20,923 nt of DNA from Planctomycetota bacterium (GTDB taxonomy: Bacteria > Planctomycetota > Phycisphaerae > WQYP01). The notes under the pieces are model-generated. The model was not told the origin of the DNA. It did not search any database and was given only the letters and a program-made list of their open reading frames with translations. A program made the position numbers and the translations under genes. This document shows, in pieces, positions 2,854 through 18,780 of this stretch (positions are counted from its first letter, which is position 1; each line of letters opens with the position of its first letter). Location of the stretch: positions 1-20,923 of the forward strand of contig JAJZGH010000055.1 in assembly GCA_021798635.1 (NCBI GenBank), given 5' to 3'.

Positions 2854-2924
2854 CCGAAATCCTTTATTTACGATCTAATCAATTCGTTCGCCCCGACCTG
2901 ACGCCAAGGCGGAACCCGGCCCGT

Positions 2925-4355
2925 TCATAAACGGCAATCATCAATAACGAACGTCGTGGTGGATTTTCCCGGCAACGTAACGCGAAAGTGATTGTCTGTT
3001 ACGTCCGGCCCGGCAATCAGTTTCAAGTTATCTGTCGGAGACGTCACATACGCCTGCACGCGGCCGCCGATATATCTGAACCCAGTGAGGTTAAAAAGAA
3101 CAGGCCGCGGCTTTGGTTTTGCGTTCACGGCCACGATAATCAGCCGGCCTTGTGTGACATGAAGTGCCGAGATACAGTCCGTGTCCGTGACGCTGATAAA
3201 CTGGAACCCGGGCCGGATGAAGCGGCTGAAATTGGCCATCACATAATATTTCTTGTTGACGATATATCGGGTCTGCTTGCCATTCTCAATATTGCTGAAA
3301 AACCCCCAGCCTCCGCCTCCGTCCACCGCCTGCCAATACACCCATGCCAAGGGTCGCAACTCGCGCATATCCTGAATAATTCGCGAAGCCATGGTGAGCC
3401 CCGTTTTATCGCCATCCCCGTATTCCGACATCCAGAGTCGTTTATTATTTGCCGCCGCAAATTGCCGTAGCTTCTGGCGTTGGGTGCCTGAATAGCTGTG
3501 CGTGTCGATCTGGTATAGGTCATCAAGTGTCTGAGCATCATAGGACTTAACCGATGCCAGGGTTTCATCAATGCTGTTATCGTCCGGTGCCGCGATTCGG
3601 GTGGCCGAGCCTCGCCGCCGTAACGCTTTGGCAAGCATGGGAATAATACGATTCTGTTCCGCATTACCGATGCGGCAACCTTCCTGTTGTCCACCGTATT
3701 TCCACCAGTTGGAGGTTGGCTCGTTAAATGCCTCAAGAGTCTGAAAGCGAATGCCCCATGTCTGGTCAAAATGTTTCACCACATCAGCCAGATATTCCGC
3801 AAACGCCTGAAAATCGGAAACTTTGAGGTTGTCCCCGCCGTTTTTCGCTCCGGTGACACTGCCGCTGACGGTCATGTAATAGGGCGGCGAATTGGAGAAT
3901 GCCTGAATATGCGTTACTCCCATGGCCATGCACTCACGCAATATCAGCCTTTGTCGCTCATCCGCCCGCCAGTCGAAAGTTCCCGCCCGCGGCGCATAGC
4001 CTGGAATCGCGCCACGATAACTCAAAAATTTATAGCGCGGATTCTCGCCACCGCCAATGTTATACCGCGCCACCGTCAATCCCAGCCCTGCTCCCGCATC
4101 AAATATTCTCGTAAGATAATCTCTGCGAATGTCCGCCGAAAAGCCACCTACAATATGCCCCCACCAGGCCAAACTCGTACCCCATCCTTCAAATTTTTGG
4201 TACGTAATACGCGCATTAATATTTACCGCGGCAATGGAAGGTCTTGCCTGGGCCATTTCCCCTGAAGCCAGAGCCATTGCCGCAGCGCTTGTCATAAGCG
4301 CACGCCGCGTAAGGGGCTGTGCAAACAGTGTACTTCCGTCGTCCGTCATGTGCAT
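2925..4355 (-). CDS. GH30 family glycoside hydrolase, endo-beta-1,6-galactanase-like, Tat-exported
   Basis: The protein has 476 residues, close to the usual length of single-domain GH30 enzymes. A twin-arginine signal (LTRRALMTSAAAMALASG, residues 16-33) suggests folded export by Tat. The catalytic (beta/alpha)8 barrel begins with FEGWGTSLAWWGHIVGG (55-71), characteristic of the endo-beta-1,6-galactanase branch of GH30. The predicted acid/base is Glu212 in EAFNEP and the nucleophile Glu311 in RLWMSEYGDG. Residues about 375-475 form the accompanying beta-sandwich. Known members cut beta-1,6-galactan side chains of arabinogalactan proteins; the exact linkage is inferred. Two starts are possible: ATG at 4355 sits directly against the ribosome binding site, while ATG at 4349 has GGAGAGG about 7 bases upstream and is the likelier true start, removing two residues. 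GH3 lies 228 bases upstream and the regulator 71 bases downstream. Confidence 0.9.
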   Translation of the reverse strand: MHMTDDGSTLFAQPLTRRALMTSAAAMALASGEMAQARPSIAAVNINARITYQKFEGWGTSLAWWGHIVGGFSADIRRDYLTRIFDAGAGLGLTVARYNIGGGENPRYKFLSYRGAIPGYAPRAGTFDWRADERQRLILRECMAMGVTHIQAFSNSPPYYMTVSGSVTGAKNGGDNLKVSDFQAFAEYLADVVKHFDQTWGIRFQTLEAFNEPTSNWWKYGGQQEGCRIGNAEQNRIIPMLAKALRRRGSATRIAAPDDNSIDETLASVKSYDAQTLDDLYQIDTHSYSGTQRQKLRQFAAANNKRLWMSEYGDGDKTGLTMASRIIQDMRELRPLAWVYWQAVDGGGGWGFFSNIENGKQTRYIVNKKYYVMANFSRFIRPGFQFISVTDTDCISALHVTQGRLIIVAVNAKPKPRPVLFNLTGFRYIGGRVQAYVTSPTDNLKLIAGPDVTDNHFRVTLPGKSTTTFVIDDCRL

Positions 4356-4583
4356 TCCTCTCCGCGATACTTGGGCACCACCCGCCCGGAATTCCTAACC
4401 TCAAAATCCCAAACAGCTTGTCCGAACAGGAATGTACTATGCCGATGATCAGGTGGATATGCAAGAGATGCGCGTATACCGTCTCAATAGAAATGTCACT
4501 CGTGGGGGGGCAACACTGCGCAGCGAGCCGCCCGGAATCGGTGCGGGTTTGATTTTACTGTGACATCTACCGCACTTGCTGAA

Positions 4584-6713
4584 TCACGGTGCCACCGGCA
4601 GGTTAAATGAGGCTCGCAGAGGCAAATGAGCGGATGAATCACCAACGTAAATATGATAAATCCCCGGCAATGGCTGCCATGCGCGTTTTGCGGTGCTCCA
4701 GTAGCGCAGCGCTTTAACCGGGACGCTCAACGTGATCTGTCGCCTCTGCCCCGGCTGCAGGTATACCTTGGCAAATCCGCGCAGTTGTTCGGGCGGTTCG
4801 GGAATCGATCGGGATGATGGATACCCCAGATAAAGCTGGGCTACTTCCGCGCCGGCTCGTCGGCCGGTGTTGGTCACATCGAACACAGCTTGCAACGCAT
4901 TACCGCCAACCCCCTGCGCCGGTGTGGTGATGTGCAAATGCCTAAATATGAATGTGGTATAGGAAAGTCCAAAGCCGAAGGGAAATGTGGGCGTGAAGTG
5001 ATGGGCGTCATAGTATCGGTACCCGACAAACACACCCTCGCTGTAATGCACCACCAGCGGCCCGTGCATCCCCAAGGCGCGATTTACCGGAACGCCGGGA
5101 TATTCCGCAGGCGTGTGCGCTGGAAGTTCGCTGGCGCTGGCAGGAAAAGTCAGTGGAAGTTTGCCGCTGGGGTTCACATCGCCAAAAAGAACCGCCGCAA
5201 CCGCATTGCCGTCTTCCTCGCCAGGGTACCATGCCTCGAGGATAGCCGGTACCTGCCGCACCCAGGGCAGGAGCTTGGATGATCCGGTTTTCAGCACCAC
5301 AATAGTATGGCTATTGGCGGCAGCAACTGCGGCAACCAGACGATTCTGGTGTTTACTTAGTGATAAAGAGTCATCGCGTCCTTCCGTCTCATGATCGCCC
5401 ACCATCACAATGGCAACTTGCACGCTGCGCGCCGCTCGGACCGCTTGCCTGATGCTGCTGCCGACATTGAAAATCACACGAACCCCGCTACCGGCGCGGT
5501 TACGAATTCCTGCAACCGGGTTGACCGTATAAAGCGGCACCACCTGTGAGCTGCCGCCGCCGCCGGTCATCGCTTGCGCGGCATATGGGCCGATCACAGC
5601 GATGGATCGGCAGGTCGCCGGATTCAAAGGCAACAGACCTCCCTGATTTTTCAGCAGTACGATCCCCTGCTCCGCGATCCGTCGAGCAATGACGCCATCG
5701 CGTCGCTTCGGCAGCGCGCGGGCTTTCGGAGGATGCGTAAAGAGATGGAAACGCATCATCGTGGCAAATCGTCGAACCAGCATGGCGTTAATCACGGACA
5801 TGGATACTTTCCCGGTCCGGATCGCCGTTTCCAGATTCTTCCGGCCGAAATAGTGGCCTTCGGGCATTTCCACATCCAGCCCAGCGAGAGCGGATGCGAC
5901 AGTGCTATGCGTAGCTCCAAAATCAGAAGTGACGAACCCGCTGAAGCCCCATCGGTTACGTAGTGTCGTATGCAGCAGGTAGGGATTTTGGCAGCAAAAC
6001 ACGCCGTTGATCCGCGGGTACGCACCCATCACAGCGCCCACGTCCGCCTGCTTTACCGCGGCTTTGAACGCGGGAAAATAGATTTCGTGCAGCGCCCGCA
6101 GAGAAATAATCTCGTTAAGTTGCCCGCGATCGGTTTCCTGATTATTCGCGGCGAAATGTTTTGCTTCCGCAATAACGTGCTGAATCTGAATGCCCCGAAT
6201 ATCGGCAACGGCCATGGCTGCGGTCAGAAAAGGGTCTTCACCCAATGCTTCAAACGTTCGCCCGCATTGTGGAACCCGCGCAATATTGATATCCGGTCCT
6301 TCCACCATACCGTAATTGAGATCGCGAGCCTCTCGCCCGATGACTTGGCCGTATTGTTGAGCCAGTTTTCGACTCCATGTGGCCGCCAGGGATATCTCCG
6401 CAGGAAGGGCGGTCGCCTTCATCTGTGGGAAATCATCGGCTGGCCCAACGCCGACACACCCATTGGCCAAACGCAGTTCAGGGATGCCAAGGCTTGGGAT
6501 TCCCACGATATGTCGCGGATGTTGATGTGTTCCCTCGCCATGGATTTCCTCGATTTTTTCCGCCAGAGTCATGCGCCGCACGAGAGCCTTGGCCCGATTC
6601 GTCAAGGCACCCACGGAATAGTTCGATGCGGGCCGGGCAAGCTTTTCGGCCTGCAATCCGCTGCACCATGCAGTCGCCGTCATGAAAACCACAACATTCA
6701 GGATCAATTTCAT
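4584..6713 (-). CDS. GH3 family glycoside hydrolase (beta-glucosidase/beta-xylosidase type)
   Basis: Using ATG at 6713 the protein has 709 residues, normal for a three-domain GH3. The reading frame is open to ATG 6782, but 6713 has GGAG with a 7-base gap and begins directly with a Sec signal peptide (MKLILNVVVFMTATAWCSGLQA). Domain order: barrel at about 35-325 with MTLAEKI, GEDPFLTA, AKHFAANNQETDR and the nucleophile Asp264 in VTSDFGATHS; alpha/beta sandwich at about 345-525 with GIVLLKNQGGLLPL and the loop HETEGRDDSLSL, whose Glu442 or Glu444 is the probable acid/base; then PGEEDGNAVAAVLFG and a C-terminal fibronectin-III-like domain from about 590. Such enzymes release beta-linked glucose, xylose or related sugars from non-reducing ends, here probably in the periplasm. 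It is the first gene of the leftward GH3-GH30-regulator series. The precise sugar specificity cannot be read from the sequence. Confidence 0.93.
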   Translation of the reverse strand: MKLILNVVVFMTATAWCSGLQAEKLARPASNYSVGALTNRAKALVRRMTLAEKIEEIHGEGTHQHPRHIVGIPSLGIPELRLANGCVGVGPADDFPQMKATALPAEISLAATWSRKLAQQYGQVIGREARDLNYGMVEGPDINIARVPQCGRTFEALGEDPFLTAAMAVADIRGIQIQHVIAEAKHFAANNQETDRGQLNEIISLRALHEIYFPAFKAAVKQADVGAVMGAYPRINGVFCCQNPYLLHTTLRNRWGFSGFVTSDFGATHSTVASALAGLDVEMPEGHYFGRKNLETAIRTGKVSMSVINAMLVRRFATMMRFHLFTHPPKARALPKRRDGVIARRIAEQGIVLLKNQGGLLPLNPATCRSIAVIGPYAAQAMTGGGGSSQVVPLYTVNPVAGIRNRAGSGVRVIFNVGSSIRQAVRAARSVQVAIVMVGDHETEGRDDSLSLSKHQNRLVAAVAAANSHTIVVLKTGSSKLLPWVRQVPAILEAWYPGEEDGNAVAAVLFGDVNPSGKLPLTFPASASELPAHTPAEYPGVPVNRALGMHGPLVVHYSEGVFVGYRYYDAHHFTPTFPFGFGLSYTTFIFRHLHITTPAQGVGGNALQAVFDVTNTGRRAGAEVAQLYLGYPSSRSIPEPPEQLRGFAKVYLQPGQRRQITLSVPVKALRYWSTAKRAWQPLPGIYHIYVGDSSAHLPLRASFNLPVAP

Positions 6714-7149
6714 TTGTCCGCTCCGCATTGTTTGGTTACTCCAATTAAAAATTTTGAAGTTCGGGGTCCCTCTTATTTTCAATGGCGCTTTACCAGCCTA
6801 TCGAAAAATCAGATCCAGCCCGCAGGGCATAAATCCCATACAGGCGGAGACCCGTTTAAACAGCAGTTTATCCAAATAGCAACTCACGTAATCACTCTCC
6901 CGCCGCACGACCTTTCAGCCGTTTCCTTTGAAGCAGTTTATACGAGCAGATGGAGCAATGCACAGATGCAAGGCAGAACTTTTCGTGGGCTGTAATTGCT
7001 TAGGTCATAACGCCGGAATAACGAAGACAGGTGCTCCAGCCCATAAAAGCCGAGTTCTACAGGGTTTTCGCATTTAAGTGGCCTATTGTGGGGGCTTTTT
7101 GCGGGTTTCCTGACCACAGATTTGTCCATATTGATCGTCGAAAAAGCTA
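6714..7149. other. Divergent intergenic region between GH3 and the rightward leader
   Basis: These bases lie between the leftward GH3 gene and the rightward promoter at 7150. I see no supportable gene. The stretch should contain the GH3 promoter on the minus strand and perhaps operators for the XylR-type regulator, but no convincing pair of boxes or symmetric operator stood out. The last part (7124-7149) belongs to the conserved promoter block shared with 12407-12432. Confidence 0.5.
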
Positions 7150-7178
7150 TTGTATACCGCGATTTTGCAACCTATACT
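7136..7178 (+). promoter_or_regulatory. Conserved promoter, copy A, of the second PEP-CTERM gene
   Basis: A sigma-70-like promoter is proposed: -35 TTGTAT at 7150-7155, a 17-base spacer, and -10 TATACT at 7173-7178. The same arrangement recurs at 12433-12461 before the pseudopilin-like gene. Positions 7136-7155 are identical to 12419-12438 (20 of 20), including GTCGAAAAAGCTATTG just upstream of and into the -35 box, which could be an activator site. Over 7124-7180 about 43 of 57 positions match without gaps. If transcription starts just after 7180, the leader before the ATG at 7594 is about 400 bases long. Confidence 0.6.
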
Positions 7179-7189
7179 CACTCATGCAA

Positions 7190-7507
7190 GATCGATTGTT
7201 CCCCTGACGTATGTCGCGGGGCGAGCCAGAGACTTGGCACACTTTTACGCAGATGGCGGCTCGGTGTACACAAATTCCGGATGAAGCAGACATAGCCGCC
7301 CGTCACTATGTCTGAGGGACAGAGTGAGCAGTGAACAAAATGGCGGAATATTGGAGGTATTTATGCGGCTAAACAGAGTCATGTGACGTTCAAACTGGCA
7401 GTGGCCCGGCCAGGCGAAGGGAGATGGTGCTCCCCGATTAGATATCCGCAGTTCCCTAGTCTCCATGGTTCCTGAGACGCAAAGGCTGTGGGGTCAAGTT
7501 GGATTCT
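7190..7507 (+). promoter_or_regulatory. Long structured 5' leader of the PEP-CTERM gene, with a possible leader peptide
   Basis: This non-coding stretch between the proposed promoter and the conserved element contains several inverted repeats. The best is CAGACATAG (7287-7295) with CTATGTCTG (7306-7314), nine pairs around a 10-base loop. Another is GGGAG (7419-7423) with CTCCC (7430-7434). A tiny open frame, MRLNRVM, at 7363-7386 has a strong GGAGG five bases upstream and could be a leader peptide. The corresponding stretch of copy B (12468-12637) is about 150 bases shorter and not clearly similar in sequence. Confidence 0.35.
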
Positions 7508-7570
7508 TATCTGTCGCATGTCGCGACAAACCGCGGTCCGTCCGGTTGGCGGACAATGTAACTGCTCTAC
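7508..7570 (+). promoter_or_regulatory. Candidate cis-acting RNA element, copy A
   Basis: This block aligns without gaps to 12638-12700, with 54 of 63 identical positions. It can form hairpin 1, TGTCGC (7512-7517) with GCGACA (7523-7528) around a 5-base loop, then a linker AAACCGC, then hairpin 2, GTCCG (7536-7540) with CGGAC (7550-7554) around TCCGGTTGG. Differences from copy B within the two-hairpin part fall in loop 1 (two), in the linker (one), and in the outer pair of hairpin 2, where G-C becomes G-U. The block ends 23 bases before the ATG at 7594, just before the ribosome binding site. I do not recognise it as a known riboswitch class. Confidence 0.6.
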
Positions 7571-7593
7571 AAGGGAGCAATAGGAGTTTTATC

Positions 7594-8436
7594 ATGAGTA
7601 TCAAATTTAACATTCTGGCTGTGTCGGCGAGCTTGGCGATGGCGTCAACGGCGATGGCGACCACTACTACAATCATCTCGGACACATTCCCCAGCACACA
7701 AGGCATCGGATCTGGCTCCTATTTGGCGGGATCCTCACCGAATGTTGGTCCGACTGGTGCCACCTGGGTGACTAATTTAGACGGAGGTGCCATCTCGAGC
7801 ACCAGCAGTTACCAGCCCTTTATTGGGCCACCGCCTGACACAGCTAATCCAGCAACTAGTGTGGCGATCTTCCCTAACGCCGTTACTGGTGATGTAGCGG
7901 CTGCTATTGGATTTACGCCAACCGGAAATGGCATCCTTTCCCTCACGGCGACATTGGATTGGGAAGGTGGCTCGTGGCTTGGAATGGGATTTGCAAATGC
8001 GGCAAGCACCGCTAATCCATCTGGCAGTCCGGGCCAGTCCGGGCCATGGATGCTGATAACCTCAAGCGTGCAAATGTTTGGGGGGACCGGTAGCACTGGT
8101 AACTTCGTCGTCCAAGGCGTCAATACTCGTCTAAACACTGTAACATTTACCTATAACCCGGCGACGATGATGGAAACTTTGGATGTGTCTAACGCGGGCA
8201 AAGGTTCCGACTACCTCACAGCCAGCGTGCCGCTCTCGCATTTTGGTGTCACAACTGCCCCGACCATTAACTCGATCTATTTCGTGACCAGGGGTGGCAG
8301 CACTAATGGCAGCAACTTCAGCAACGTGACTCTCACGCAGGGACCTGCTCAAGTTGTTCCGGAACCGGCGGCGTTCGGTCTGCTGGGCGTGGCTGGTGCA
8401 GCCCTGCTGCTGCTTCGCCGTCGCAGAACCGTCTGA
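7594..8436 (+). CDS. PEP-CTERM sorting domain protein, secreted and surface-anchored
   Basis: The frame is open from 7465, but the start is placed at ATG 7594 because AGGAG stands 7 bases upstream and the protein then begins with a clean Sec signal peptide (MSIKFNILAVSASLAMASTAMA). The mature protein of about 258 residues is rich in Thr, Ser, Gly and Asn with beta-strand-like segments (GILSLTATLDWEGGSWLGMG, NTVTFTYNPATMMETLDVS), suggesting a lectin-like beta-sandwich; the fold is inferred. The C-terminus carries PEP at residues 256-258, a hydrophobic helix and a terminal RRRRTV, the exosortase sorting signal. Upstream are the conserved promoter and RNA-like element shared with the gene at 12725. 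A strong terminator follows 36 bases after the stop, so the gene is probably transcribed alone. Confidence 0.93.
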   Translation: MSIKFNILAVSASLAMASTAMATTTTIISDTFPSTQGIGSGSYLAGSSPNVGPTGATWVTNLDGGAISSTSSYQPFIGPPPDTANPATSVAIFPNAVTGDVAAAIGFTPTGNGILSLTATLDWEGGSWLGMGFANAASTANPSGSPGQSGPWMLITSSVQMFGGTGSTGNFVVQGVNTRLNTVTFTYNPATMMETLDVSNAGKGSDYLTASVPLSHFGVTTAPTINSIYFVTRGGSTNGSNFSNVTLTQGPAQVVPEPAAFGLLGVAGAALLLLRRRRTV

Positions 8437-8472
8437 TCGCCACCGCGGTAACGTATCGTCTTTCCCTCCCAG

Positions 8473-8512
8473 CGCGGGGCTGATTTCGCAGTCGGAATCA
8501 GCCCCGCGTTTA
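8473..8512 (+). terminator. Intrinsic terminator after the PEP-CTERM gene
   Basis: CGCGGGGCTGATT at 8473-8485 pairs perfectly with AATCAGCCCCGCG at 8496-8508, giving a 13-base-pair stem with a 10-base loop, followed by TTTAT. This is the clearest intrinsic terminator in the window. It isolates the PEP-CTERM gene from the downstream GH78 gene. Confidence 0.9.
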
Positions 8513-8751
8513 TACGTTGCATAGTTATTCCTGATGCAAATTGAAAAACGGCGAGCAAAGTTAGGTAAGTGACTTAACGGCATGAAGGCCCAGCGAACCG
8601 GACAACAGGAGAAATTCCAGCATGCGTATAGCGCGATTACACCAGAGTTCGGCATGCGCTGGGTCGATTTTACCGGTGTTGCCGTTTGCCGCATTTTCCC
8701 TGCGGGAAACCTCTGCGGGAATAGATGTGCCCAGTGTTCAAGGTATCATAA
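8513..8751. other. Intergenic region before the orphan PEP-CTERM tail
   Basis: No gene can be supported in these bases. A perfect small inverted repeat, TTGCAT (8517-8522) with ATGCAA (8534-8539), could be an operator. A second imperfect one lies at 8560-8578. An open frame of 74 codons at 8582-8806 has no recognisable domain and overlaps the PEP-CTERM remnant in another frame, so it is not called as a gene. The GH78 promoter is probably here or slightly downstream. Confidence 0.4.
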
Positions 8752-8895
8752 GCTGGGTTTACTAACCTCCTTCGAAACGACAGATCCCAGAGTTCTTTGG
8801 ACTTAATTGCCGTTGCCGTGCCGGAACCAATCCCGCCGGTGATGCTGGGTGCGGCCTTGTCGGCACTGATGTTACGGCGGCGGCGCAAGGCCTGA
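8752..8895 (+). pseudogene. Orphan PEP-CTERM tail, remnant of a lost gene
   Basis: One frame, open from 8752 to the TGA at 8893-8895, ends with VAVPEPIPPVMLGAALSALM followed by LRRRRKA: a complete PEP-CTERM sorting signal with the PEP motif, hydrophobic helix and terminal arginine cluster. A TAA at 8749-8751 closes the frame upstream. There is no ATG before the PEP motif, and no signal peptide or mature domain precedes it. It is therefore read as the 3' end of a PEP-CTERM gene whose body was deleted or has decayed. It ends only 32 bases before the GH78 start. A sequencing or assembly error upstream is an alternative explanation. Confidence 0.6.
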
Positions 8896-8927
8896 TTGAT
8901 GTGAACTATTTAAGAAGGGACCGCTCA

Positions 8928-11900
8928 ATGCTGGTGTCACCAAGTCGATGCGCATTTTCACGGTGGATTTATCTTTGTTTACGGACCGGTGTTTTCGTGC
9001 TCTACATTGGCCGGAGCGGCTTTCCTGCGGCAGTGTCCGCATCACCGTCCGCCCGGATTCCTGCGGCGGATCGCATCAGGCCGCGGTTATCCAACGCCGG
9101 TAAGGCCCTGTCAAATGCCCCCAGCCGTCCGCGTTGCCAATGGTTACGGAATCCCATTGGACTGCAGTCGCCGAACCCGCGCCTGACATGGTTGGTGCCG
9201 CAGCGGCGGGCGCTAAGCCACGAAGCCTATTATCAGATTCAGGTGGCCAGCTCGCCGATCAATCTCAAGCGCGGCCGTGATTTGATTTGGAATTCCGGAA
9301 AAGTGTTGGAAAATCCGGATTTCCTACCGCAATATGGCGGGCCGGCATTCAGAGCATACCGACATTATTACTGGCACGTGCGGGTTTGGGGTAAGGACGG
9401 CTGGAAGTCGCACTGGAGCCGGATTGCAAATTGGATGACCGGGCCGCTTCATACCAGCAACTGGCGGGGATACTGGATCAGCTACCGGCACAAAATCAAT
9501 AATCCCTTTTATCAATCGGCGCACAACGCCTACTACGGCTTACCTCTGCCGAGGTGGACGAGAAGACTCGAGCAAGCCGACTGGATCCTTTCCGCCGGCG
9601 CGGCGGTTCCCGGTTCATTCAATGCACCTCCCGGATTGTATGAGCTAAGCCGGAGTTTTAAGCTGCCCGTGGGCGTAAAATTCCGCGGAAGTTACCTTAC
9701 CATTGCCGCCGATAATGGCTGCAATGTGGCGATAAACGGCAACGTGGTGTCGTCGGGGTTCGCAGCGCCATGGAATCACCCAGCGGTGTTGAATGTTACG
9801 GCTACTCTGCACGGCGGAGAAAACAGGATCGCGGTGCTGTTGAAAAATGATGGCAACCGGCCGAGCCCGGCGGGGTTGATAGCGGAGTTGGCCATACGCG
9901 GATCCAATGGATTTCATAAGCGACTGGTCACCGACAGTCGGTGGCGCGCCCAAGCCGCACCTACGGGTGCCGGCTGGCTGGCCGGTGCCGCGAAAGCAAG
10001 AAAGGCGGTGGTAATGGCGCCATGGGGCGGCGGTCCGTGGAGCACGATCAGAGGGCTTCAGCCCAACTGGGTGCAAAAAGAGCCGGACCCGATTTTTCGC
10101 AAAGTGTTTCGTGCGCCAGTGCACCTAATACAAGCATACATGTACATGGCTTCGCCAAGCTATTGGAAGGTGCTGATCAATGGGAAAAAAGTAGGCAAGG
10201 GTGAGCTGGAGTCCACGCTGTACGATTATACCAGGGCGGTACCGTACCAGAGTTTCAACGTACGGTCGTTACTCAAGCCGGGGAAAGAAAACGTGGTGTC
10301 AATTGAGTTGGGGAACGGCTGGTACAATTTCATGGAACCCAACCCCGGCGGCTATCAACATGCCCTTTGGCGAGCGTGGCCAAGAGTGCGCATGAACCTC
10401 CTGATGCGGAGCTCTGACGGTGCGTCGGCCTGGTTGGCTACCAATAGCAGTTGGCAGGCCGCGGACGGCCCGTATCTGGCCGACGGCATCTATAACGGCG
10501 AAGTTTACGACGCGGCGCAGAAAATTCATGGATGGAACAATCCAGATCGGAAACTGGCACAGCTTGTTGACGCCAAAATTGCAAAAGCCCCCGCAGGCCG
10601 GCTTACCACGCAACTCATGCCGCCATGCGAGGTCATAGAGCGGTTGGCGCCGGTATACATCCGCGAGCCAAAGCCACAGGTATTTGTGGTCAAATTCCCA
10701 CAGAATATGTCGGGCTGGGTAACCCTGACGGCCAAGGGCCGGCCGGGTGTCCCCGTCGTGCTGCAATATGCGGAACTCATCAAGCAAAATGGGTTGGTGA
10801 ACCAGGCCCCCATTTCCAGTCAGGCCTCAGCCGGCCCATTTCAAACTGACGTCTATATTCCCGCGAACAGCAATCCGTTCACGTACCATCCTGATTTTGC
10901 GTATAACGGCTTTCAGTACGTACAGATCAGCGGACTAGCGGCGAAAAATGATATTCTCCGGATTCGGGCCGACTTTATCCATACGGTCTTTCATCGCTCC
11001 GGTACGTTCTGGAGTTCCAACGCGCTGCTGAACGCGATTGCCGACGCTACCAGCCGCAGCTATTGCAGCAACTTCATGGGGTATCCGACTGATTGCCCGC
11101 AGCGGGAGAAAAACGGTTGGACCGGTGATGCCTGGCTGGGGGCAGCGCAAGGAATGATGACCTATAACAATCAACTCGGCTATGCCAAGTGGCTTAACGA
11201 TATAAGCGACACGCAATTTCCCAATGGCCGGCTTCTCGTGGTGATGCCCAATCCGTCGGCATGGGATTGGGACCGTGGAAAATATCCTGATCCGGACTGG
11301 GAAAGCGCCGATGAATTCGTCTGCTGGTGGCAGTACCTGTATTTTGGCGATGGTCGAATTTTAAGCGAGCATTTTAACGGCCTCAAACGATACTTCCGCT
11401 TTGTAATGAGCTATGCCCAACATGATATTCTGCCCAACGGCGCGGGTATTGGCGACTGGGGCAACCCGGCCCGACGCAGACCCTCCATTTCTTTTTCGTC
11501 GACCTGTATCCTCTATCATGATGCAGTGCTCCTGGCCCGGATCTCCGAGGTGCTCGGTAAACGAAAAGACGTGGCGGCATTTACCGCAGATGCGGCTACC
11601 ATCCGGCAGGCCTTTAATCAACGATTCTACAAGGGCCATGGCGTGTACGGCGATGGCGGCCAAACAGCGCAGGCCATGCCCCTCTATTATGGAGTTGCAA
11701 CCCGGAAAACACGCCCGTTGGTGCTCCAACGTCTGGTGCTGGCGGTGCACCGGCATGGGGATCATTTGGACGTCGGTGTTCTGGGCGACAAATGTCTGTT
11801 TCGGGTCTTAAGCAGATACGGCCACGCCGCTTTGGCGTATCGTATCGCGACCCGAACCACCTACCCCAGCTATGGGCAATGGATACGCCACGGGGCCACA

Positions 11901-12326
11901 ACGTTGTGGGAAGGTTGGGGGCTGCTGCCCGCCTCACACAACCACATCATGTTCGGCGATATTTTGGGTTGGATGTACAATGATATGGCAGGCCTGAAGC
12001 CCGATTGGCGATCACCCGGATTCCGAACGATCCTTATCAACCCGCACCCCGTTAAGGCTCTGGCTTGGGCACAAGCGGAGCATGAAAGCCAATTTGGACT
12101 TATTAAAAGTGCGTGGCGCTGGCAGGGCCGACAATTGGTATTGAGCATTACCATTCCGCCCGCGAGTTCGGCGTTGATCACGCTGCCGGGAGCGGGCAAT
12201 CAAGTGGTGCAATGCAATGGTAGGCCTATGGTCTCGATTGCTGGCGGCGTAGCGGACGTGAGCCGCGTGGTGTCTTTTGGTCCGGGAACGTACCGCTTGG
12301 TCTACATGCCGCACGGGCTGCACTAA
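8928..12326 (+). CDS. GH78 family alpha-L-rhamnosidase, large secreted multidomain enzyme
   Basis: From ATG 8928 the protein has 1132 residues. The frame also allows GTG at 8901, but AAGGGA lies 7 bases before 8928 and no ribosome binding site serves 8901. A hydrophobic N-terminus (about residues 10-40) looks like a Sec signal. Residues about 70-180 form the N-terminal beta-domain (NPRLTWLVPQ, VRVWGKDGWKSHWS). Residues 215-345 hold a jelly-roll insertion (ADNGCNVAINGN, GGENRIAVLLKN), and another beta-domain covers about 390-560. The (alpha/alpha)6 catalytic barrel spans about 685-1035, with the probable general acid Glu727 in DCPQREKNGWTGDAW and the probable general base Glu995 in TTLWEGWG. 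A C-terminal beta-sandwich follows. The enzyme removes terminal alpha-L-rhamnose from rhamnogalacturonan, arabinogalactan, gums or glycosides. The acid motif is REKNGW where many relatives have RDERLGW. Confidence 0.95.
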   Translation: MLVSPSRCAFSRWIYLCLRTGVFVLYIGRSGFPAAVSASPSARIPAADRIRPRLSNAGKALSNAPSRPRCQWLRNPIGLQSPNPRLTWLVPQRRALSHEAYYQIQVASSPINLKRGRDLIWNSGKVLENPDFLPQYGGPAFRAYRHYYWHVRVWGKDGWKSHWSRIANWMTGPLHTSNWRGYWISYRHKINNPFYQSAHNAYYGLPLPRWTRRLEQADWILSAGAAVPGSFNAPPGLYELSRSFKLPVGVKFRGSYLTIAADNGCNVAINGNVVSSGFAAPWNHPAVLNVTATLHGGENRIAVLLKNDGNRPSPAGLIAELAIRGSNGFHKRLVTDSRWRAQAAPTGAGWLAGAAKARKAVVMAPWGGGPWSTIRGLQPNWVQKEPDPIFRKVFRAPVHLIQAYMYMASPSYWKVLINGKKVGKGELESTLYDYTRAVPYQSFNVRSLLKPGKENVVSIELGNGWYNFMEPNPGGYQHALWRAWPRVRMNLLMRSSDGASAWLATNSSWQAADGPYLADGIYNGEVYDAAQKIHGWNNPDRKLAQLVDAKIAKAPAGRLTTQLMPPCEVIERLAPVYIREPKPQVFVVKFPQNMSGWVTLTAKGRPGVPVVLQYAELIKQNGLVNQAPISSQASAGPFQTDVYIPANSNPFTYHPDFAYNGFQYVQISGLAAKNDILRIRADFIHTVFHRSGTFWSSNALLNAIADATSRSYCSNFMGYPTDCPQREKNGWTGDAWLGAAQGMMTYNNQLGYAKWLNDISDTQFPNGRLLVVMPNPSAWDWDRGKYPDPDWESADEFVCWWQYLYFGDGRILSEHFNGLKRYFRFVMSYAQHDILPNGAGIGDWGNPARRRPSISFSSTCILYHDAVLLARISEVLGKRKDVAAFTADAATIRQAFNQRFYKGHGVYGDGGQTAQAMPLYYGVATRKTRPLVLQRLVLAVHRHGDHLDVGVLGDKCLFRVLSRYGHAALAYRIATRTTYPSYGQWIRHGATTLWEGWGLLPASHNHIMFGDILGWMYNDMAGLKPDWRSPGFRTILINPHPVKALAWAQAEHESQFGLIKSAWRWQGRQLVLSITIPPASSALITLPGAGNQVVQCNGRPMVSIAGGVADVSRVVSFGPGTYRLVYMPHGLH

Positions 12327-12637
12327 CCCGGATATTTCATCGTTAAAGGCCGATGTATCTGGGCCAACAATGGGCCGAGCCGCGGAGCATAAATACCCGC
12401 TGATTCGTCCATGCTGACCGTCGAAAAAGCTATTGTATTGGCTGATTTTACGAGATACACTTACATTGGAAAGGTTAGTTCAGTTTCCTTTTTACGGCTA
12501 TCGCGGTTTTGACCGCAGGCCCTTGGCGCTGGGACGTAAGCTGTGGTATGTCGCCATCATGATTCTGATAACGATAAGCTTACGGCCTTTCGTGTAAATT
12601 GCAGTTTGAGAAAAGAGCAAGTAGCAAGGTATCTGTG
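12327..12637 (+). other. Intergenic region and leader between GH78 and the pseudopilin-like gene
   Basis: No gene is supported. After the GH78 stop there is no convincing intrinsic terminator. The conserved promoter block lies at 12407-12461. Past it, the presumed leader can form a hairpin with GCGGT (12503-12507) and ACCGC (12512-12516) around TTTG, and a longer pairing of CGTAAGCT (12535-12542) with AGCTTACG (12577-12584). This parallels the structured leader before the gene at 7594, though without clear sequence similarity in this part. Confidence 0.4.
12419..12461 (+). promoter_or_regulatory. Conserved promoter, copy B, of the pseudopilin-like gene
   Basis: The -35 box TTGTAT at 12433-12438, a 17-base spacer and the -10 box TACACT at 12456-12461 match copy A (7150-7178). 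The 20 bases at 12419-12438 are identical to 7136-7155. The predicted leader from here to the ATG at 12725 is about 260 bases, some 150 shorter than in copy A. Confidence 0.58.
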
Positions 12638-12700
12638 TATCTGTCGCAATTCGCGACAAACCGCAGTCCGTCCGGTTGGCGGATGATGCAAAAGTTCTAC
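12638..12700 (+). promoter_or_regulatory. Candidate cis-acting RNA element, copy B
   Basis: This is the second copy of the 63-base block at 7508-7570. Hairpin 1 pairs TGTCGC (12642-12647) with GCGACA (12653-12658) around AATTC. Hairpin 2 pairs GTCCG (12666-12670) with CGGAT (12680-12684), the outer pair being a G-U wobble. The block ends 24 bases before the ATG at 12725, almost the same distance as in copy A, so its position relative to the ribosome binding site is conserved. Confidence 0.6.
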
Positions 12701-12724
12701 ATGCGGAAAAAAAGGAGTCTGATT

Positions 12725-13789
12725 ATGGGACCCAGCAAATGTATCCATTCACGCAGGGTACGGCCGGCTGCTGCCACCGTATCGCAATCTGTAAAGTCGT
12801 CCAAGGGTGCAAACAACCCATCAGGCGGGTTCACTCTTATTGAACTTCTGGTGGTGATATCCATCATCGCGGTTCTCATCAGCCTGCTTCTGCCGGCATT
12901 GGCGCGAGCGAAGATTTTGGCGCAAAGGATTCAATGCGCGTCCAACCTTCACCAGATCGGCATGGCCATGCAGGAATATGCTAACGAATTTGGGATGTAT
13001 CCGCCGGGTGACACGGAAACCTATCCCATGGGCAGTTTTAATAATGCGGGCTTCACTCCTCCTAACGGAGAGCCTTCGGCGAGAACACCGGCATGGGGGC
13101 TGGCGTTATTGTATTACGATTCTTTTACCGTCCTACATTCGGGCCTCGCATTGACGAATATCCGTCCGGGAATTCTCAGCCCCACGCCCACCGGCATTTC
13201 CCTGTTGTTTTCACCGGAACCTGGAATGGCCAGTATGGCCAATCAAATTAACAAGGGCGATTGGACCAGCAATGGCCAGGACATGCTGCAGAACTGGAGT
13301 TTTATCACCGGTTATTGCTACTGGGTGGATCGTGGCACAAGCGGAAACACGCAGGCCGGTACCTACAGCTCCGGTGCGCCACAAAACGGTGGCGTGGCTG
13401 GCTACAGCCCAAGCTATGACTGGTTCATGTACCAAACCCGCTATCATCCACCATATACAATTACTGACGAGTACTTCAACACAGACACGAATCACATGCC
13501 TGCGGAAAACCAGAATTCCAATCCCGGGTCTCTTCTGTGCTCCGATCTTGCAGCTACGACTGGTCCATTTCTGCCGTACCAAGGTTTCAACTCAAGCTAC
13601 GGAGCCTACGGAACTGGAAATTCGGGAATTTGGCCTATGTCAAATCATGTCGATACACCAAATAATAACTGGCTACCGGATGGCGTGCATGACCTGTATA
13701 ACGATGCTTCGGTATCATGGGATCCCATCGGGCAGGCGAAGGTGCATTATTACTTTGGTGCCGGAAGTGTTCGTTATTATATGTGGTAG
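12725..13789 (+). CDS. Pseudopilin-like protein with prepilin N-terminal methylation motif
   Basis: The frame is open from 12599, but ATG 12725 has AAAGGAG 7 bases upstream and is chosen; an in-frame ATG at 12701 without a good ribosome binding site is the alternative. The protein has 354 residues. The prepilin motif [13 protein letters not shown] sits at residues 34-46, with predicted cleavage at Gly35/Phe36, after an unusually long, basic 35-residue leader. The helix is followed by [20 protein letters not shown], typical of the large pseudopilin-like families of Planctomycetota and Verrucomicrobiota. Near the C-terminus, a His followed after ten residues by Asp-Gly (HVD...[16 protein letters not shown]) resembles the H-X9-DG processing-associated motif. 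The mature part is rich in Tyr, Asn, Gly and Pro. It is probably anchored at the inner membrane and exposed outside it. Upstream is the same promoter and RNA-like element as for the gene at 7594. Confidence 0.9.
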
Positions 13790-14138
13790 CTTGAACGCGT
13801 ACGCCCGATTATAGGGTTCTGGGGCAGATTGCCGTGCCTGCCACTGTTAGAAAGGCAATGTTGGCACTTTAGAAAAGTGCCAGTGAAATCTAAGCGACGT
13901 ACGATGAACTCTGCCTACGTTGTATTATTTATTTGTTGGGATTTCATTGGCAGCCGGTACCTTCTAATAGTATGGTTGCCGAACTCCCATGTACCGCCGA
14001 AAGGTACGCTTTCATACGGTTGCAATACTTGCGAATTACGCTGCAACTGTCGTGGGTATACCGTGAACCGGCCCACTGTCTTTCATTGTTTATAATTCCA
14101 ACTATCGTCACAGCATCTTTCACAAGGACATTTCTACG
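13790..14138 (+). other. Intergenic region upstream of GH31, rich in inverted repeats
   Basis: No gene is supported; open frames here show no recognisable domain. A perfect hairpin sequence lies at 13862-13882. Further on, three short complementary pairs follow one another: GTACC (13991-13995) with GGTAC (14003-14007), GTTGCA (14019-14024) with TGCAAC (14042-14047), and GTGGG (14052-14056) with CCCAC (14072-14076). A TATAAT hexamer occurs about 50 bases before the GH31 start, but I see no good -35 at the proper distance. These may form a structured leader for GH31. Confidence 0.35.
13862..13882. repeat. Perfect 9-bp inverted repeat, possible terminator hairpin or operator
   Basis: TGGCACTTT is followed by AGA and then AAAGTGCCA, a perfect nine-pair palindrome with a 3-base centre. 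It lies 72 bases after the pseudopilin-like stop codon and about 255 bases before the GH31 start. There is no T-run after it on either strand, so a classical intrinsic terminator is not certain; a transcript 3'-end hairpin or a regulator binding site are alternatives. Confidence 0.5.
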
Positions 14139-16415
14139 ATGGGAAATCAATCCATGGAAAATTCAAATTCGCCGGTATTAGTTACCCGCCGCAAGGCCAT
14201 GGGAGCATTGGCCGCGGTCGCCGTGTCGCTGCAAGCGGGGCGTTCGGCGTCGGCGCGCCATGTACAGTCTGCGTCGGACGAATTTACTCAGAACGGTCCA
14301 CATGGTTCTATTGAGTCTGGTGGCGTTGCTGTGTCGGATATTACGCAAGTGTATCCCGGCGTCTGGAAAGTTCATTTCGGTGGTGCTAGCGAAAGAGTCA
14401 CGCCGTTGACCTTCCGCTCAGCCTCCGCCAATCCTGCTGCAATCGGCGCATTGCCTGAGGTGCCAGCAATTCCCTTGGATATTAAAGCGATGTCTTGGAC
14501 GCTTTCGGCACGCGGGGTCTCGCTGCAGATGCCTATGACCCCCGACGAGCATATTTACGGCCTCGGCTTGGATACTGAAATATTTGATATGACCGGTCGT
14601 CGAGCCACTTGTGCGCCATCTGATAATCCGCAGGACAAAATGGATTATTCGCATGCGCCCGTGCCGTTCTATGTTTCTAGCCGTGGATACGGCGTGTATG
14701 TGGATACCGCGCGCTATGCGTGGATTTATACCGGCAACGTAGCGCCGGTAACCAATGCTGGCAACGGTAGGCACGAAGATGGAGTCCAACCCGCACTAAG
14801 TACGCGGGAGCTATATCGCCCACGCGAAACAAGTCATAAAACCATGATGATTGATGTTCATCCGTCGCGGGGTGTGGATATTTATATTTTCGGCGGTCCA
14901 ACGCTGCGCGACGCGGTGCAGCGTTACAACCTGTTTTCCGGGGGTGGTGCGGTGCCTCCATTGTGGGGGCTGGGTATGCACTTCCGCAGTGCTTCGCACA
15001 TGCCTGGAAGGCAGATTCTGGCTCTGGCCAAGCGCATTCGTAACCAGCGCATGCCCTTCACGATGTGGGGCATTGAGCCGGGCTGGCAAAGCCATGCCTA
15101 TTCCTGTTCGTTTATGTGGAATAAAGAAAACTTTCCTGATCCCGATGGGTTTATCGGGGAAATGAAAGGCATGAATTATCACATTAATCTCTGGGAACAT
15201 GCCTTCACGAATCCCATATCGCCGATGTTCAAGAAATTAAAGCCCTGGTCGGGCAATTACCTGGTCTGGGATGGATTGGTGCCGGATTTCGCCACCCCGC
15301 AGGCGCGGAAAATATGGATCGACCATCATGACCAAATCATGTTCGACAAAGGGGTTGATGGGGTTAAGCTTGACGAATGCGATAATCAACCGTATCGCGC
15401 TCATCCGTGGTCATTTCCCGAAGCCAGTGTGTTTCCATCCGGCTTGGATGGAGAGCTCATGCACAGTCTGTTTGGCGTGCTTTATCAGCAGACCATGATT
15501 GAACCGTTAACGCGCCGTAATCTCCGAACTTGGGGGTTGGTACGTGACAGTTTTTCCCTGGCGGCACCGCTGCCGTTTATGTTGTACAGCGACACCTATG
15601 ATCTAGCCTGCTACTTGCGGGGTGTCTGTAAACAGGGCTTCTGCGGACTATTGTGGGATCCCGAATTGCGCCAGGCGGCCTCGGTGGAGGATCTGTTTCG
15701 GCGCATTCAACTGGTAATTTTCTCCCCCATGGCTGTGGTGGATTGCTGGTACATGAATCTCCCGCCCTGGCTGCAGGTTAACAAGGCCATGAGCAATCGC
15801 GGTGAACTCATGCCGGATCATCAGGCGGTTACCGAGGCTGTCCGGAAGCTTTTCGAATTACGCATGAGCCTGATTCCGTATCTTTACGCGGCGTTTAATG
15901 AATATCGCCGCACCGGCATGCCGCCGATCCGCGCTATGGTGATGGATTGGCCGCAAGACCCCCGCACTTATGAAATCGATGATCAATTCATGTTCGGCCC
16001 GGCGATCATGGTAGCACCGATCCTGACAGGTCAGACGGAACGCAAAGTATATCTGCCGCATGGCACGTGGTATGATTTTGCCACACGTCAGGAATACAAA
16101 GGTGGCGGATGGATCACTATCAGCAGACCTCCGGAAGAGGTTCCGATGTTTGTGAAATCCGACACCCTGTTACCGCTGGCCCGCCCGGTGGAATATATAA
16201 CACCTGAAACCTGCTTTGAAGTAACGGTGCACGTATTCGGCAAAGCGCCTGCACCGATCACACTTTATGAAGATGACGGCATGAGCTATGATTTCCAAAA
16301 GGGGAAACAGAACCGGATCGCAATAACTTGGACGCAAGGGCGAGGTGAGGTGCAAAAATCAGGTGCTTACAGCGGGCCGATACGGTATAAAATAGCAGCG
16401 TTCGAACAGAAGTGA
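14139..16415 (+). CDS. GH31 family glycoside hydrolase, Tat-exported
   Basis: The protein has 758 residues. The N-terminus holds a twin-arginine signal (VTRRKAMGALAAVAVSLQAG, residues 15-34). A beta-sandwich domain (about 60-255) with EHIYGLGLDTE is followed by the (beta/alpha)8 barrel (about 270-600): PPLWGLGMHFR, FTMWGIEPGW, and the nucleophile Asp412 in GVDGVKLDECD. The acid/base is probably Asp485 in LYSDTYDL, a context unlike the Trp-Gly-Asp type seen in classical alpha-glucosidases. Then come FELRMSLIPYLYAAF, FMFGPAIMVAPIL and the C-terminal beta-domains ending near TLYEDDGMSYDFQKG. GH31 enzymes act on alpha-linked glucose, xylose, galactose or sulfoquinovose; this subgroup's substrate is not evident. 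AAGGA stands 10 bases before the ATG at 14139, and an in-frame ATG at 14154 is also possible. It is followed 178 bases later by the hydrolase gene. Confidence 0.92.
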   Translation: MGNQSMENSNSPVLVTRRKAMGALAAVAVSLQAGRSASARHVQSASDEFTQNGPHGSIESGGVAVSDITQVYPGVWKVHFGGASERVTPLTFRSASANPAAIGALPEVPAIPLDIKAMSWTLSARGVSLQMPMTPDEHIYGLGLDTEIFDMTGRRATCAPSDNPQDKMDYSHAPVPFYVSSRGYGVYVDTARYAWIYTGNVAPVTNAGNGRHEDGVQPALSTRELYRPRETSHKTMMIDVHPSRGVDIYIFGGPTLRDAVQRYNLFSGGGAVPPLWGLGMHFRSASHMPGRQILALAKRIRNQRMPFTMWGIEPGWQSHAYSCSFMWNKENFPDPDGFIGEMKGMNYHINLWEHAFTNPISPMFKKLKPWSGNYLVWDGLVPDFATPQARKIWIDHHDQIMFDKGVDGVKLDECDNQPYRAHPWSFPEASVFPSGLDGELMHSLFGVLYQQTMIEPLTRRNLRTWGLVRDSFSLAAPLPFMLYSDTYDLACYLRGVCKQGFCGLLWDPELRQAASVEDLFRRIQLVIFSPMAVVDCWYMNLPPWLQVNKAMSNRGELMPDHQAVTEAVRKLFELRMSLIPYLYAAFNEYRRTGMPPIRAMVMDWPQDPRTYEIDDQFMFGPAIMVAPILTGQTERKVYLPHGTWYDFATRQEYKGGGWITISRPPEEVPMFVKSDTLLPLARPVEYITPETCFEVTVHVFGKAPAPITLYEDDGMSYDFQKGKQNRIAITWTQGRGEVQKSGAYSGPIRYKIAAFEQK

Positions 16416-16593
16416 GCTGTCGTATCAAAGGGCCTGGCAAAACGAACGATCCAGAAATATCTTTTCCTGACGACAAGTAGCAGTCTGCTTTCGCATTTAT
16501 GTTTAGTCGCTAATAGTGTTGATGCTGGATCGCTCAACTTTGGTTTGAGGCATCGCGAATGTGTATTGAAAAGGTAAAATACGGAGGTCACGG

Positions 16594-17520: not shown

Positions 17521-17636
17521 CCGCAAGTGCCGTACCTACATTGACGGCGATGCTTATAACAATATTTAGATAATTACCGATGGAAGCCCCGGTTCATAGC
17601 GAGGACACAAGGTTTGTATGCACCCTTGACCATGTT

Positions 17637-18755: not shown

Positions 18756-18780
18756 ATTTATTTACTCCTATGTTTGTGTG

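What the first reader, a model, noticed from the sequence alone, without database searches (positions are those of the whole stretch)
7508..12700. A 63-base two-hairpin element precedes two unrelated surface-protein genes
Positions 7508-7570 and 12638-12700 align without gaps at 54 of 63 positions and end 23-24 bases before the start codons of a PEP-CTERM gene and a pseudopilin-like gene. Both copies fold on paper into the same two hairpins (TGTCGC/GCGACA and GTCCG/CGGAC or CGGAT). The differences inside that fold are two in the loop, one in the linker and one that turns G-C into G-U, the pattern expected of a conserved RNA rather than a protein binding site. The encoded proteins share no similarity, so this is not simple gene duplication. 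The position just before the ribosome binding site suggests translational or riboswitch-like control of a surface-protein regulon.
Basis: partly seen in the sequence, partly recalled or inferred. Interest (0 to 1): 0.8.

Follow-up and report, generated by a model that had tools for sequence, protein, structure and literature searches.

The report
Structured RNA leader of surface genes
The repeated stretch is very probably a folded RNA leader, found at least 130 times in one group of Phycisphaerae and mostly just before the start of genes for exported surface proteins, so it looks like a so-far undescribed shared control element; what it responds to is unknown.

Summary
In detail: the two 63-base copies share 54 of 63 positions, end 23-24 bases before start codons and fold alike. 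Covariance models grown from them found 135 copies in 19 of 28 genomes of one Phycisphaerae family and, in wider but shallower samples of Planctomycetota, two isolated matches judged chance. A model of the two hairpins alone finds the same sites; 82 of its 90 matches in fetched loci lie 30-50 nt before a Shine-Dalgarno-ATG, against 2.8% of random positions. Of 119 distinct downstream proteins 89 match PEP-CTERM and 8 the prepilin motif. Stems covary: 282 double-changed cells against 88 in shuffles; a third hairpin covaries too; a pseudoknot is likely, not proven. Near-identical leaders can precede unrelated gene bodies. No Rfam family matched. Best reading: a new family of cis-acting leader RNA of a surface-protein regulon, probably acting at translation initiation. 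Trigger and mode of control are not shown; tests for simple Shine-Dalgarno sequestration found no support.

The parts
7508..7570 (+). Copy 1 of the 63-nt element as first reported
   Evidence: 54/63 identical to copy 2; model R1 102.3 bits over 7504-7599 (copy 1 was in the training set)
7512..7528 (+). P1 hairpin, copy 1 (TGTCGC 7512-7517, loop ATGTC, GCGACA 7523-7528)
   Evidence: fold; P1 pairs covary in A3 and in gapless A7
7531..7545 (+). Proposed pseudoknot, copy 1: linker CCG 7531-7533 with P2 loop CGG 7543-7545
   Evidence: 97.8% of cells pair in A3, with CCU/AGG in L087 and L089; permutation test p 0.16: likely, not proven
7536..7554 (+). P2 hairpin, copy 1 (GTCCGTC 7536-7542, loop CGGTT 7543-7547, GGCGGAC 7548-7554)
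   Evidence: P2 core helix 98.4% of cells paired in A3, all six pairs with double changes; outermost pair 75.2%; 97.7% in A7
7563..7579 (+). P3 hairpin next to the Shine-Dalgarno, copy 1 (TGCTCT/GGAGCA)
   Evidence: fold of the 101-nt leader; P3 covaries in A3, which was not fitted to P3
7582..7586 (+). Shine-Dalgarno AGGAG
   Evidence: sequence
7594..8436 (+). Gene behind copy 1: PEP-CTERM protein, 280 aa
   Evidence: TIGR02595 22.1 bits, cut-off 16
12638..12700 (+). Copy 2 of the 63-nt element
   Evidence: model R1 90.9 bits over 12634-12730 (in the training set)
12642..12658 (+). P1 hairpin, copy 2
   Evidence: fold
12661..12675 (+). Proposed pseudoknot, copy 2: CCG 12661-12663 with CGG 12673-12675
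   Evidence: as for copy 1
12666..12684 (+). P2 hairpin, copy 2 (outermost pair G-U)
   Evidence: fold (in the 101-nt context the best fold shifts the outer pairs)
12713..12717 (+). Shine-Dalgarno AGGAG; the P3 hairpin before it is nearly lost in copy 2 and in its G001 counterpart L044
   Evidence: sequence, parse
12725..13789 (+). Gene behind copy 2: prepilin-motif (pseudopilin-like) protein, 354 aa
   Evidence: TIGR02532 25.6 bits, cut-off 16.3; similar proteins behind an element in G001, G011 and G023 (L044, L043, L045)

Best explanation
The element is a cis-acting structured RNA in the 5' untranslated leader of mRNAs for exported surface proteins. Anatomy: hairpin P1 (sequence free, pairing kept), a linker with CCG, hairpin P2 with loop CGGU(Y) probably closed into a small H-type pseudoknot by linker CCG pairing with loop CGG, a spacer of about 10 nt, hairpin P3, mostly 0-5 nt, AGGAG, a U-rich spacer, ATG. 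Shown by comparison: the paired structure is under selection; it sits at a nearly fixed place before start codons; it marks a subset of the PEP-CTERM genes and some prepilin genes of one lineage. Inferred: it is transcribed; a shared factor, more likely a protein or small RNA than a metabolite, recognises the P1/pseudoknot part and changes ribosome loading on the adjacent Shine-Dalgarno, so that part of the surface proteome is switched together. Also inferred: the leader spreads between genes by recombination or gene conversion as a cassette. The confidence given is for the core (cis-acting leader RNA of a surface-protein regulon); my odds for its steps: cis-acting RNA about 0.95, regulon of exported proteins about 0.9, control at translation initiation about 0.6. 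The riboswitch and constitutive-leader rivals are alternatives inside that core.
For: 135 matches in 19 of 28 family genomes at E<=1e-3 (only the best 149 candidates per genome were scored, so counts may be low). Covariation in A3: 87.8% of cells paired against 76.9% in shuffles, 282 double-changed cells against 88.2 (sd 7.6), slid versions 18-62 on about half as many cells. A7, a gapless MAFFT alignment not fitted to a structure: 92.9% against 86.1%, 30 double changes against 9.8. P3 alone: 45 against 12.1. Model R3, with only P1 and P2: the 60 family places at E<=1e-4 are all places; 82 of 90 matches in the fetched loci lie 30-50 nt before a Shine-Dalgarno-preceded ATG, against 152 of 5400 random positions with one at 30-60 nt. 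Downstream: 89 PEP-CTERM and 8 prepilin of 119 proteins at E<=0.05. Not coding in general: gene frame open over the element in 52 of 81, other frames 45 and 51. No intrinsic terminator-like site in the two window leaders.
Against: No expression data. Predicted Shine-Dalgarno openness is the same as with shuffled leaders (0.347 against 0.340; higher in 35 of 77, p 0.97); the Shine-Dalgarno-to-ATG stretch is slightly more open (0.500 against 0.477, p 0.008). No co-evolution of spacer or P3 5' arm with the Shine-Dalgarno region; the pseudoknot test is not significant either. P3 slid by one column still pairs in 76.8% of the cells left, against 81.2% in register, and the number of pairs with double changes (6) is reached by 147 of 500 shuffles; in A7 the number of further pair types is reached by 66 of 500. 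9 of 28 family genomes lack detectable copies although all 28 have PEP-CTERM matches, and in the 19 positive genomes 135 elements face 688 PEP-CTERM matches (my sums), so it marks a subset. P3 is nearly lost in copy 2 and L044. One clear copy (L064) precedes a URO-D-like gene. The loci were fetched with models that contain Shine-Dalgarno and ATG columns; R3 as a genome search is the check on that.
Confidence: 0.8

Rival explanations
1. Riboswitch proper (an alternative inside the core reading): the P1/pseudoknot part binds a small molecule directly, for instance a second messenger or a cell-envelope precursor, and toggles ribosome access.
For: Compact core with near-invariant linker CCG and loop CGG, nearly fixed place next to the ribosome binding site, tandem copies in a few leaders (L052 twice, L104, L100, L067, L050).
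Against: The genes are mostly structural exported proteins, not enzymes or transporters that would point to a ligand; few conserved unpaired positions outside the proposed pseudoknot (by eye); no expression platform found; one lineage only as far as sampled.
Confidence: 0.22
2. Constitutive leader (an alternative inside the core reading): the hairpins stabilise the mRNA or provide a ribosome standby site and do not respond to any signal.
For: P3 sits directly before the Shine-Dalgarno and keeps pairing while sequence changes; the Shine-Dalgarno-to-ATG stretch is slightly more open than with shuffled leaders.
Against: A merely stabilising hairpin would not be expected to need a near-invariant CCG/CGG core or to be largely confined to one functional class of genes.
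Confidence: 0.2
3. The stretch is coding: it encodes an N-terminal extension of the surface proteins.
For: Of 43 Shine-Dalgarno-ATG places 96-135 nt upstream of the gene start, 29 open an ORF in frame and without stop through the element into the gene (16 of 23 after removing near-identical leaders).
Against: Over 81 nonredundant elements the gene frame is open hardly more often than the other frames (52, 45, 51); copies 1 and 2 read differently in the gene frame; pairing is kept while codons change.
Confidence: 0.05
4. Shared ancestry only: the copies are recently duplicated promoter or gene-start DNA without function at the RNA level.
For: Within genomes leaders are copied with upstream DNA: 19 same-genome pairs with element identity of at least 0.92 average 0.82 over -180 to -100 and only 0.64 and 0.61 in coding bases 90-180 and 180-300.
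Against: Across genomes the sequence diverges while pairs are kept; P1 can be replaced by a wholly different stem (L078, L039).
Confidence: 0.03
5. DNA-level operator or sigma factor site with dyad symmetry.
For: Inverted repeats; proteobacterial PEP-CTERM genes have DNA motifs upstream (Haft 2006, PMC1569441, section 7 and passages read). Some AT-rich words cluster mildly upstream of the element (AAGTAT-like 18 at -10 to -6, TTGCTT-like 14 at -45 to -41 in 95 leaders), part of it from related leaders.
Against: Nearly fixed place 30-50 nt before ATG; double changes that keep pairing but change the sequence.
Confidence: 0.05

Closest known systems
Sigma-54/PrsR DNA motifs upstream of proteobacterial PEP-CTERM genes (Haft et al. 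2006, PMC1569441; section 7 and passages read)
   Same: Shared cis-element before many PEP-CTERM genes, marking a subset (99 of 167 there)
   Different: DNA promoter/enhancer motifs, found by those authors only in Proteobacteria; here a folded leader RNA next to the ribosome binding site in Planctomycetota. A passage of that paper's conclusion says that more PEP-CTERM regulatory motifs remain to be discovered.
Orphan cis-regulatory RNA motifs and riboswitch candidates (Weinberg et al. 2010, PMC2864571; passages only)
   Same: Candidate structured leader RNAs found by comparison, many of them restricted to one lineage
   Different: No Rfam match here. The one passage found that names Planctomycetes lists a motif Rhodopirellula-1 without a sequence or Rfam number, so identity with it could not be tested.
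H-type pseudoknot leaders such as preQ1 or SAM-II riboswitches and ribosomal-protein leaders (recalled, no call)
   Same: Small pseudoknot close to the ribosome binding site
   Different: In the riboswitches recalled the Shine-Dalgarno is part of or next to the pseudoknot; here P3 lies between, and the pseudoknot itself is only likely

Membership tests
Any Rfam 15 family | Match at the curated gathering score | tested here: not met
   0 matches for the whole window, 0 for 7480-7620 (copy 1) even at E<=5, 0 in 20 loci with diverse copies
Cis-regulatory leader RNA | Covarying secondary structure | tested here: met
   (shuffle and slide controls; no tree-aware test)
Cis-regulatory leader RNA | Set place upstream of functionally related genes | tested here: met
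   82 of 90 at 30-50 nt; 89 + 8 of 119 proteins
Cis-regulatory leader RNA | Transcribed as part of the mRNA | not testable with these tools
   no transcript data held
Riboswitch | Direct ligand binding | not testable with these tools
   needs probing
Riboswitch | Expression platform (terminator or mutually exclusive Shine-Dalgarno pairing) | tested here: inconclusive
   no terminator-like site in the two window leaders; no Shine-Dalgarno co-evolution in 52 leaders; openness as in shuffles in 77 leaders
RNA thermometer | Shine-Dalgarno held in a helix | tested here: not met
   0.347 unpaired against 0.340 in shuffles; P3 ends before AGGAG. Predictions at 37 C only.
Haft sigma-54/PrsR motif | -24/-12 sigma-54 site and motif 1 | tested here: inconclusive
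   TGGCAC-like words scattered over 100 nt upstream in 95 leaders; the published two-motif model was not run
CsrA target | csrA present where the element is | tested here: inconclusive
   CsrA in 27 of 28 family genomes, with and without the element; none found in G027, which has 15 elements but an assembly of only 1.5 Mb

The most novel reading that the evidence does not exclude
A new class of signal-responsive leader RNA, peculiar to one Phycisphaerae lineage, that sets which exosortase and prepilin substrates are displayed, and that moves as a leader cassette between unrelated gene bodies, so that new surface proteins are captured into the regulon by recombination at a constant 5' end.
Probability: 0.3. 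Interest if true: 0.85.

Novelty: new variant of a known kind. Interest (0 to 1): 0.74.

Why it matters
In the papers looked at here, shared control of PEP-CTERM surface proteins is described for Proteobacteria and at the DNA level. A covarying RNA at 135 sites in one lineage gives a concrete, mutable handle on how little-studied Planctomycetota might switch their surface proteome, an orphan RNA to screen for a ligand or a binding protein, and a possible case of genes being recruited to a regulon by swapping a leader cassette.

Tried and rejected
Chance repeat: rejected. Known RNA family: none. Coding N-terminal extension as the general explanation: rejected by nearly equal openness of the three frames, though a subset has an in-frame upstream ORF. 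Shine-Dalgarno sequestration by the spacer: matched pairs were weaker than mismatched ones (-1.22 against -1.67). P3 5' arm as a co-evolving anti-Shine-Dalgarno: matched -4.65 against -4.58, p 0.22; complementarity to GGAG is generic, so competition is possible. CsrA by presence and absence: not informative. Sigma-70 promoters: one match in 6783-7600, overlapping the element's 3' end, against 0.8 expected, and two in 12320-12730, both on the minus strand, against 0.5 expected; none upstream of an element on the plus strand. Element in family genomes without it: regions around PEP-CTERM matches of eight of the nine such genomes (not G003) gave no match below E 0.05 with filters off. Wider spread: the matches outside the family were G312 (E 2.6e-4) and G682 (E 1.5e-4), both looked at and judged chance, since the ATG opens only six codons, and 14 genomes at E 5.7e-4 to 0.009 with the short model R3 among 397 (not looked at). 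MAFFT on 88 copies gave a gappy alignment. The automatic parse mis-assigned P1 or P2 in a number of copies and found no P2 in six, copies whose parsed P2 loop did not begin with CGG, AGG or GGG, or whose spacer was outside 7-16 nt, were dropped (81 kept, 52 after removing similar ones). One control line (after masking copy 1) was faulty, because the mask matched itself, and is not used.
Full report
OBSERVATION. The two copies are real and beyond chance: 54 of 63 identical positions, against 37-39 for the best 63-nt pair in each of five shuffles of the window; each half-pattern occurs only at the two places, with 0.00 and 0.04 expected. They lie 23 and 24 bases before ATG 7594 (PEP-CTERM protein, TIGR02595 22.1 bits, cut-off 16) and ATG 12725 (prepilin motif TIGR02532 25.6 bits, cut-off 16.3). 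Energies of the isolated 63-mers are only modestly low (z -1.69 and -2.20), so comparison had to decide. The window's other PEP-CTERM gene (329-1171, minus strand) has no copy before it: R1 finds only the two copies in the window at E<=5.

FINDING RELATIVES. No genome is held for the window. One exact-pattern scan of genome contigs gave one locus, in a record titled MAG TPA_asm: Phycisphaerales bacterium isolate clean5707, where a counterpart of copy 2 precedes the counterpart of the prepilin gene. That genome (G001) served as centre. BLASTN with copy 1 matched 8 of 28 genomes of its family at E<=1e-3, 13 places. Fourteen copies gave alignment A2 and model R1, which found 132 matches at E<=0.1 in 20 of 28 genomes. 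With R2 (A3 plus P3) there are 135 matches at E<=1e-3 in 19 of 28 genomes, up to 21 in one. The 'order' search covered the same 28 handles, so family and order cannot be told apart here. Only the best 149 candidates per genome were scored, so counts may be low.

DISTRIBUTION. Among 397 genomes of the class, the 19 positive ones of the family included, 20 matched; the one outside, G312 at E 2.6e-4, looks like chance. Among 392 genomes of the phylum G001 and G682 (E 1.5e-4) matched; G682 also looks like chance, its ATG opening six codons. These large searches used stricter filters and scored only 10 candidates per genome, so diverged or rare copies could be missed. The short model R3 matched 31 of 397 at E<=0.01 (15 candidates per genome), 14 of them outside the family and none of those below 5.7e-4; by the nominal E-value three or four chance matches would be expected, and E-values of these models can be off about fivefold. 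As far as sampled, the element is confined to one lineage. Nine family genomes lack it at this threshold although all 28 have PEP-CTERM matches (8-57 each; two genomes were capped) and 26 of 28 an exosortase; regions sampled from eight of the nine gave no convincing copy.

STRUCTURE. In A3 (109 distinct rows) P1, P2, P3 and the proposed pseudoknot pair in 87.8% of cells against 76.9% in shuffles; 282 cells changed on both sides against 88.2; slid versions have at most 62, on about half as many cells, with 26.6-54.8% paired. By helix: P1 81.4 and 91.8%, P2 core 98.4% (outermost pair 75.2%), pseudoknot triplet 97.8% (a possible fourth A-U pair 62.9%), P3 80.7 and 84.1%. A3 was fitted to P1 and P2 by R1, so two less biased checks were made. 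The gapless MAFFT alignment A7 of 19 copies, selected for equal length, gives 92.9% against 86.1% and 30 double changes against 9.8, but further pair types only 18 against 16.2 (66 of 500 shuffles reach it). P3, which R1 did not contain, gives 45 double changes against 12.1 and 81.2% against 73.5%, but a slide of +1 still pairs 76.8% of the remaining cells. Shuffles ignore relatedness; slides keep it but favour a structure derived from the same sequences; a tree-aware test was not available. P1 can be an altogether different stem (L078, L039). The pseudoknot triplet is nearly invariant; CCU/AGG occurs in L087 and L089, which look like counterparts and count as one event, and perhaps CCC/GGG in L126; a matched-against-mismatched energy test is not significant (p 0.16). 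It is likely, not proven. The layout (3-bp stem, about 2-nt loop, 6-7-bp P2, 2-3-nt loop) would suit an H-type pseudoknot; that judgement is from general knowledge.

PLACE AND GENES. R1 and R2 contain Shine-Dalgarno and ATG columns, so R3 was built from P1-P2 only. Of its 80 family matches at E<=0.01, the 60 at E<=1e-4 are all places already found by R1. In 100 sources (the window and 99 loci, fetched because R1 had matched there) R3 gave 90 matches at E<=0.1: 83 have a Shine-Dalgarno-preceded ATG opening at least 25 codons within 150 nt, 82 of them at 30-50 nt; random positions in the same loci have one at 30-60 nt in 152 of 5400 cases. By simple motifs those 83 genes are 68 PEP-CTERM, 5 prepilin, 5 cut by the locus end and 5 others, of which four end in a PEP-CTERM-like tail by eye and one (L064) is URO-D-like. 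By profile search 89 of 119 distinct downstream proteins of 128 R1 matches (122 genes, of which 119 encode distinct proteins) match TIGR02595 and 8 the prepilin motif at E<=0.05; ten of the 119 are cut by the locus end, and the 119 include the genes behind a few weak matches. The prepilin cases are fewer than they look: the window, L043, L044 and L045 proteins look like one gene in four genomes, L061 is another, L110 and L075 lie behind degenerate or incomplete matches, and L124:1728 follows a match of only E 0.046. The bodies are diverse (DUF642, laminin-G-like, legume-lectin, PATR).

LEADER AS CASSETTE. Over all fetched copies 72 pairs have elements more than 88% identical; the 30 with the least similar proteins, the only ones printed, have 25-34% global protein identity. 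Within seven genomes (a hand-typed list of 69 loci) 19 same-genome pairs, from six of them, have element identity of at least 0.92: they average 0.82 over -180 to -100 but 0.64 and 0.61 in coding bases 90-180 and 180-300, near the level of the 192 pairs with dissimilar elements (0.59, 0.60); the first 30 coding bases average 0.84. L077 is a complete gene duplicate and L085 a partial one; the rest diverge after the start. Examples: L079 (elements identical, upstream 0.99, bodies near background), L125/L127, L123/L130. So leaders seem copied or homogenised independently of the gene body, and copies within one genome are not independent evidence of covariation.

MECHANISM. Shown by comparison: structure under selection, place, gene class. 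Inferred: transcription, a trans-acting factor, action on translation initiation. Tests of simple switching were negative or neutral: no spacer or P3 co-evolution with the Shine-Dalgarno (52 leaders), Shine-Dalgarno openness as in shuffled leaders, with a slightly more open Shine-Dalgarno-to-ATG stretch (77 leaders). No terminator-like site in the two window leaders. This favours a bound factor next to the ribosome binding site over a self-contained thermometer or terminator switch. CsrA is nearly universal in the family and uninformative.

UPSTREAM ORF. In a subset a second Shine-Dalgarno-ATG lies 96-135 nt upstream: of 43 such places 29 are in frame and open through the element, 16 of 23 after removing near-identical leaders, these 16 at 108-123 nt. 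Over all 81 nonredundant elements the frames are about equally open (52, 45, 51), so the element is not coding in general, but in this subset ribosomes may run through it, which could itself be regulatory.

KNOWN WORK. Haft et al. 2006 (PMC1569441; section 7 and passages read) describe sigma-54-type DNA motifs before 99 of 167 proteobacterial PEP-CTERM genes and state in their conclusion that further motifs remain to be discovered. Weinberg et al. 2010 (PMC2864571; passages only) list one motif with Planctomycetes, Rhodopirellula-1, with no sequence seen. The main texts of PMC11109978 and PMC8632094 hold none of the words Planctomyc, Phycisphaera, PEP-CTERM, pilin or exosortase (word search only). 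Searches for PEP-CTERM with riboswitch, with Phycisphaerae, with noncoding RNA, and with upstream, conserved motif and Planctomycetes, and three broader ones, listed no title or abstract start that reports this element; apart from the four papers named, the listed papers were not opened. Most subscription papers, and probably the 2017 motif collection (recalled), are not held.

Noticed in passing
L033, L046, L053, L056, L057, L065, L074, L076, L096 (about 110-200 nt before the gene start): A second, different hairpin module (an outer GCUCUC/GAGAGC-like stem around GCCAACC-GUGU-GGUUGGC, with variants that keep pairing by eye) precedes an in-frame upstream Shine-Dalgarno-ATG whose ORF runs through the element into the gene.
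   Followed up: partly
L052 859-1070 and 6728-6937, L067, L050, L104, L100: Tandem copies of the element with starts about 110-120 nt apart; the first copy has its own Shine-Dalgarno-ATG, in frame with the gene. In L067 the second copy is no longer followed by ATG and its P3 is weak.
   Followed up: partly
L143 (G018), before PEP-CTERM starts: In a family genome without the element, three PEP-CTERM leaders carry another hairpin near the start, GGCCAGC-CU-GCUGGCC twice and GGUCAGC-CU-GCUGACC once, perhaps a separate leader type.
   Followed up: no
L079 651-748 and 8273-8370: Two identical elements with 99% identical DNA at -180 to -100 stand before two PEP-CTERM-type genes whose bodies are near background identity.
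   Followed up: yes
window 1528-20874: The PEP-CTERM and prepilin genes sit among sugar-degrading enzymes (alpha-L-rhamnosidase-like, GH3-like, alpha-xylosidase-like) and an ORF that reads like a XylR/AraC-type regulator (1528-2853 minus, judged by eye); R1 finds no element before these.
   Followed up: no
L064 775-1907: One clear copy (60.5 bits with R1; it was also in the training set as L020) stands before a uroporphyrinogen-decarboxylase-like gene, not a surface protein.
   Followed up: no
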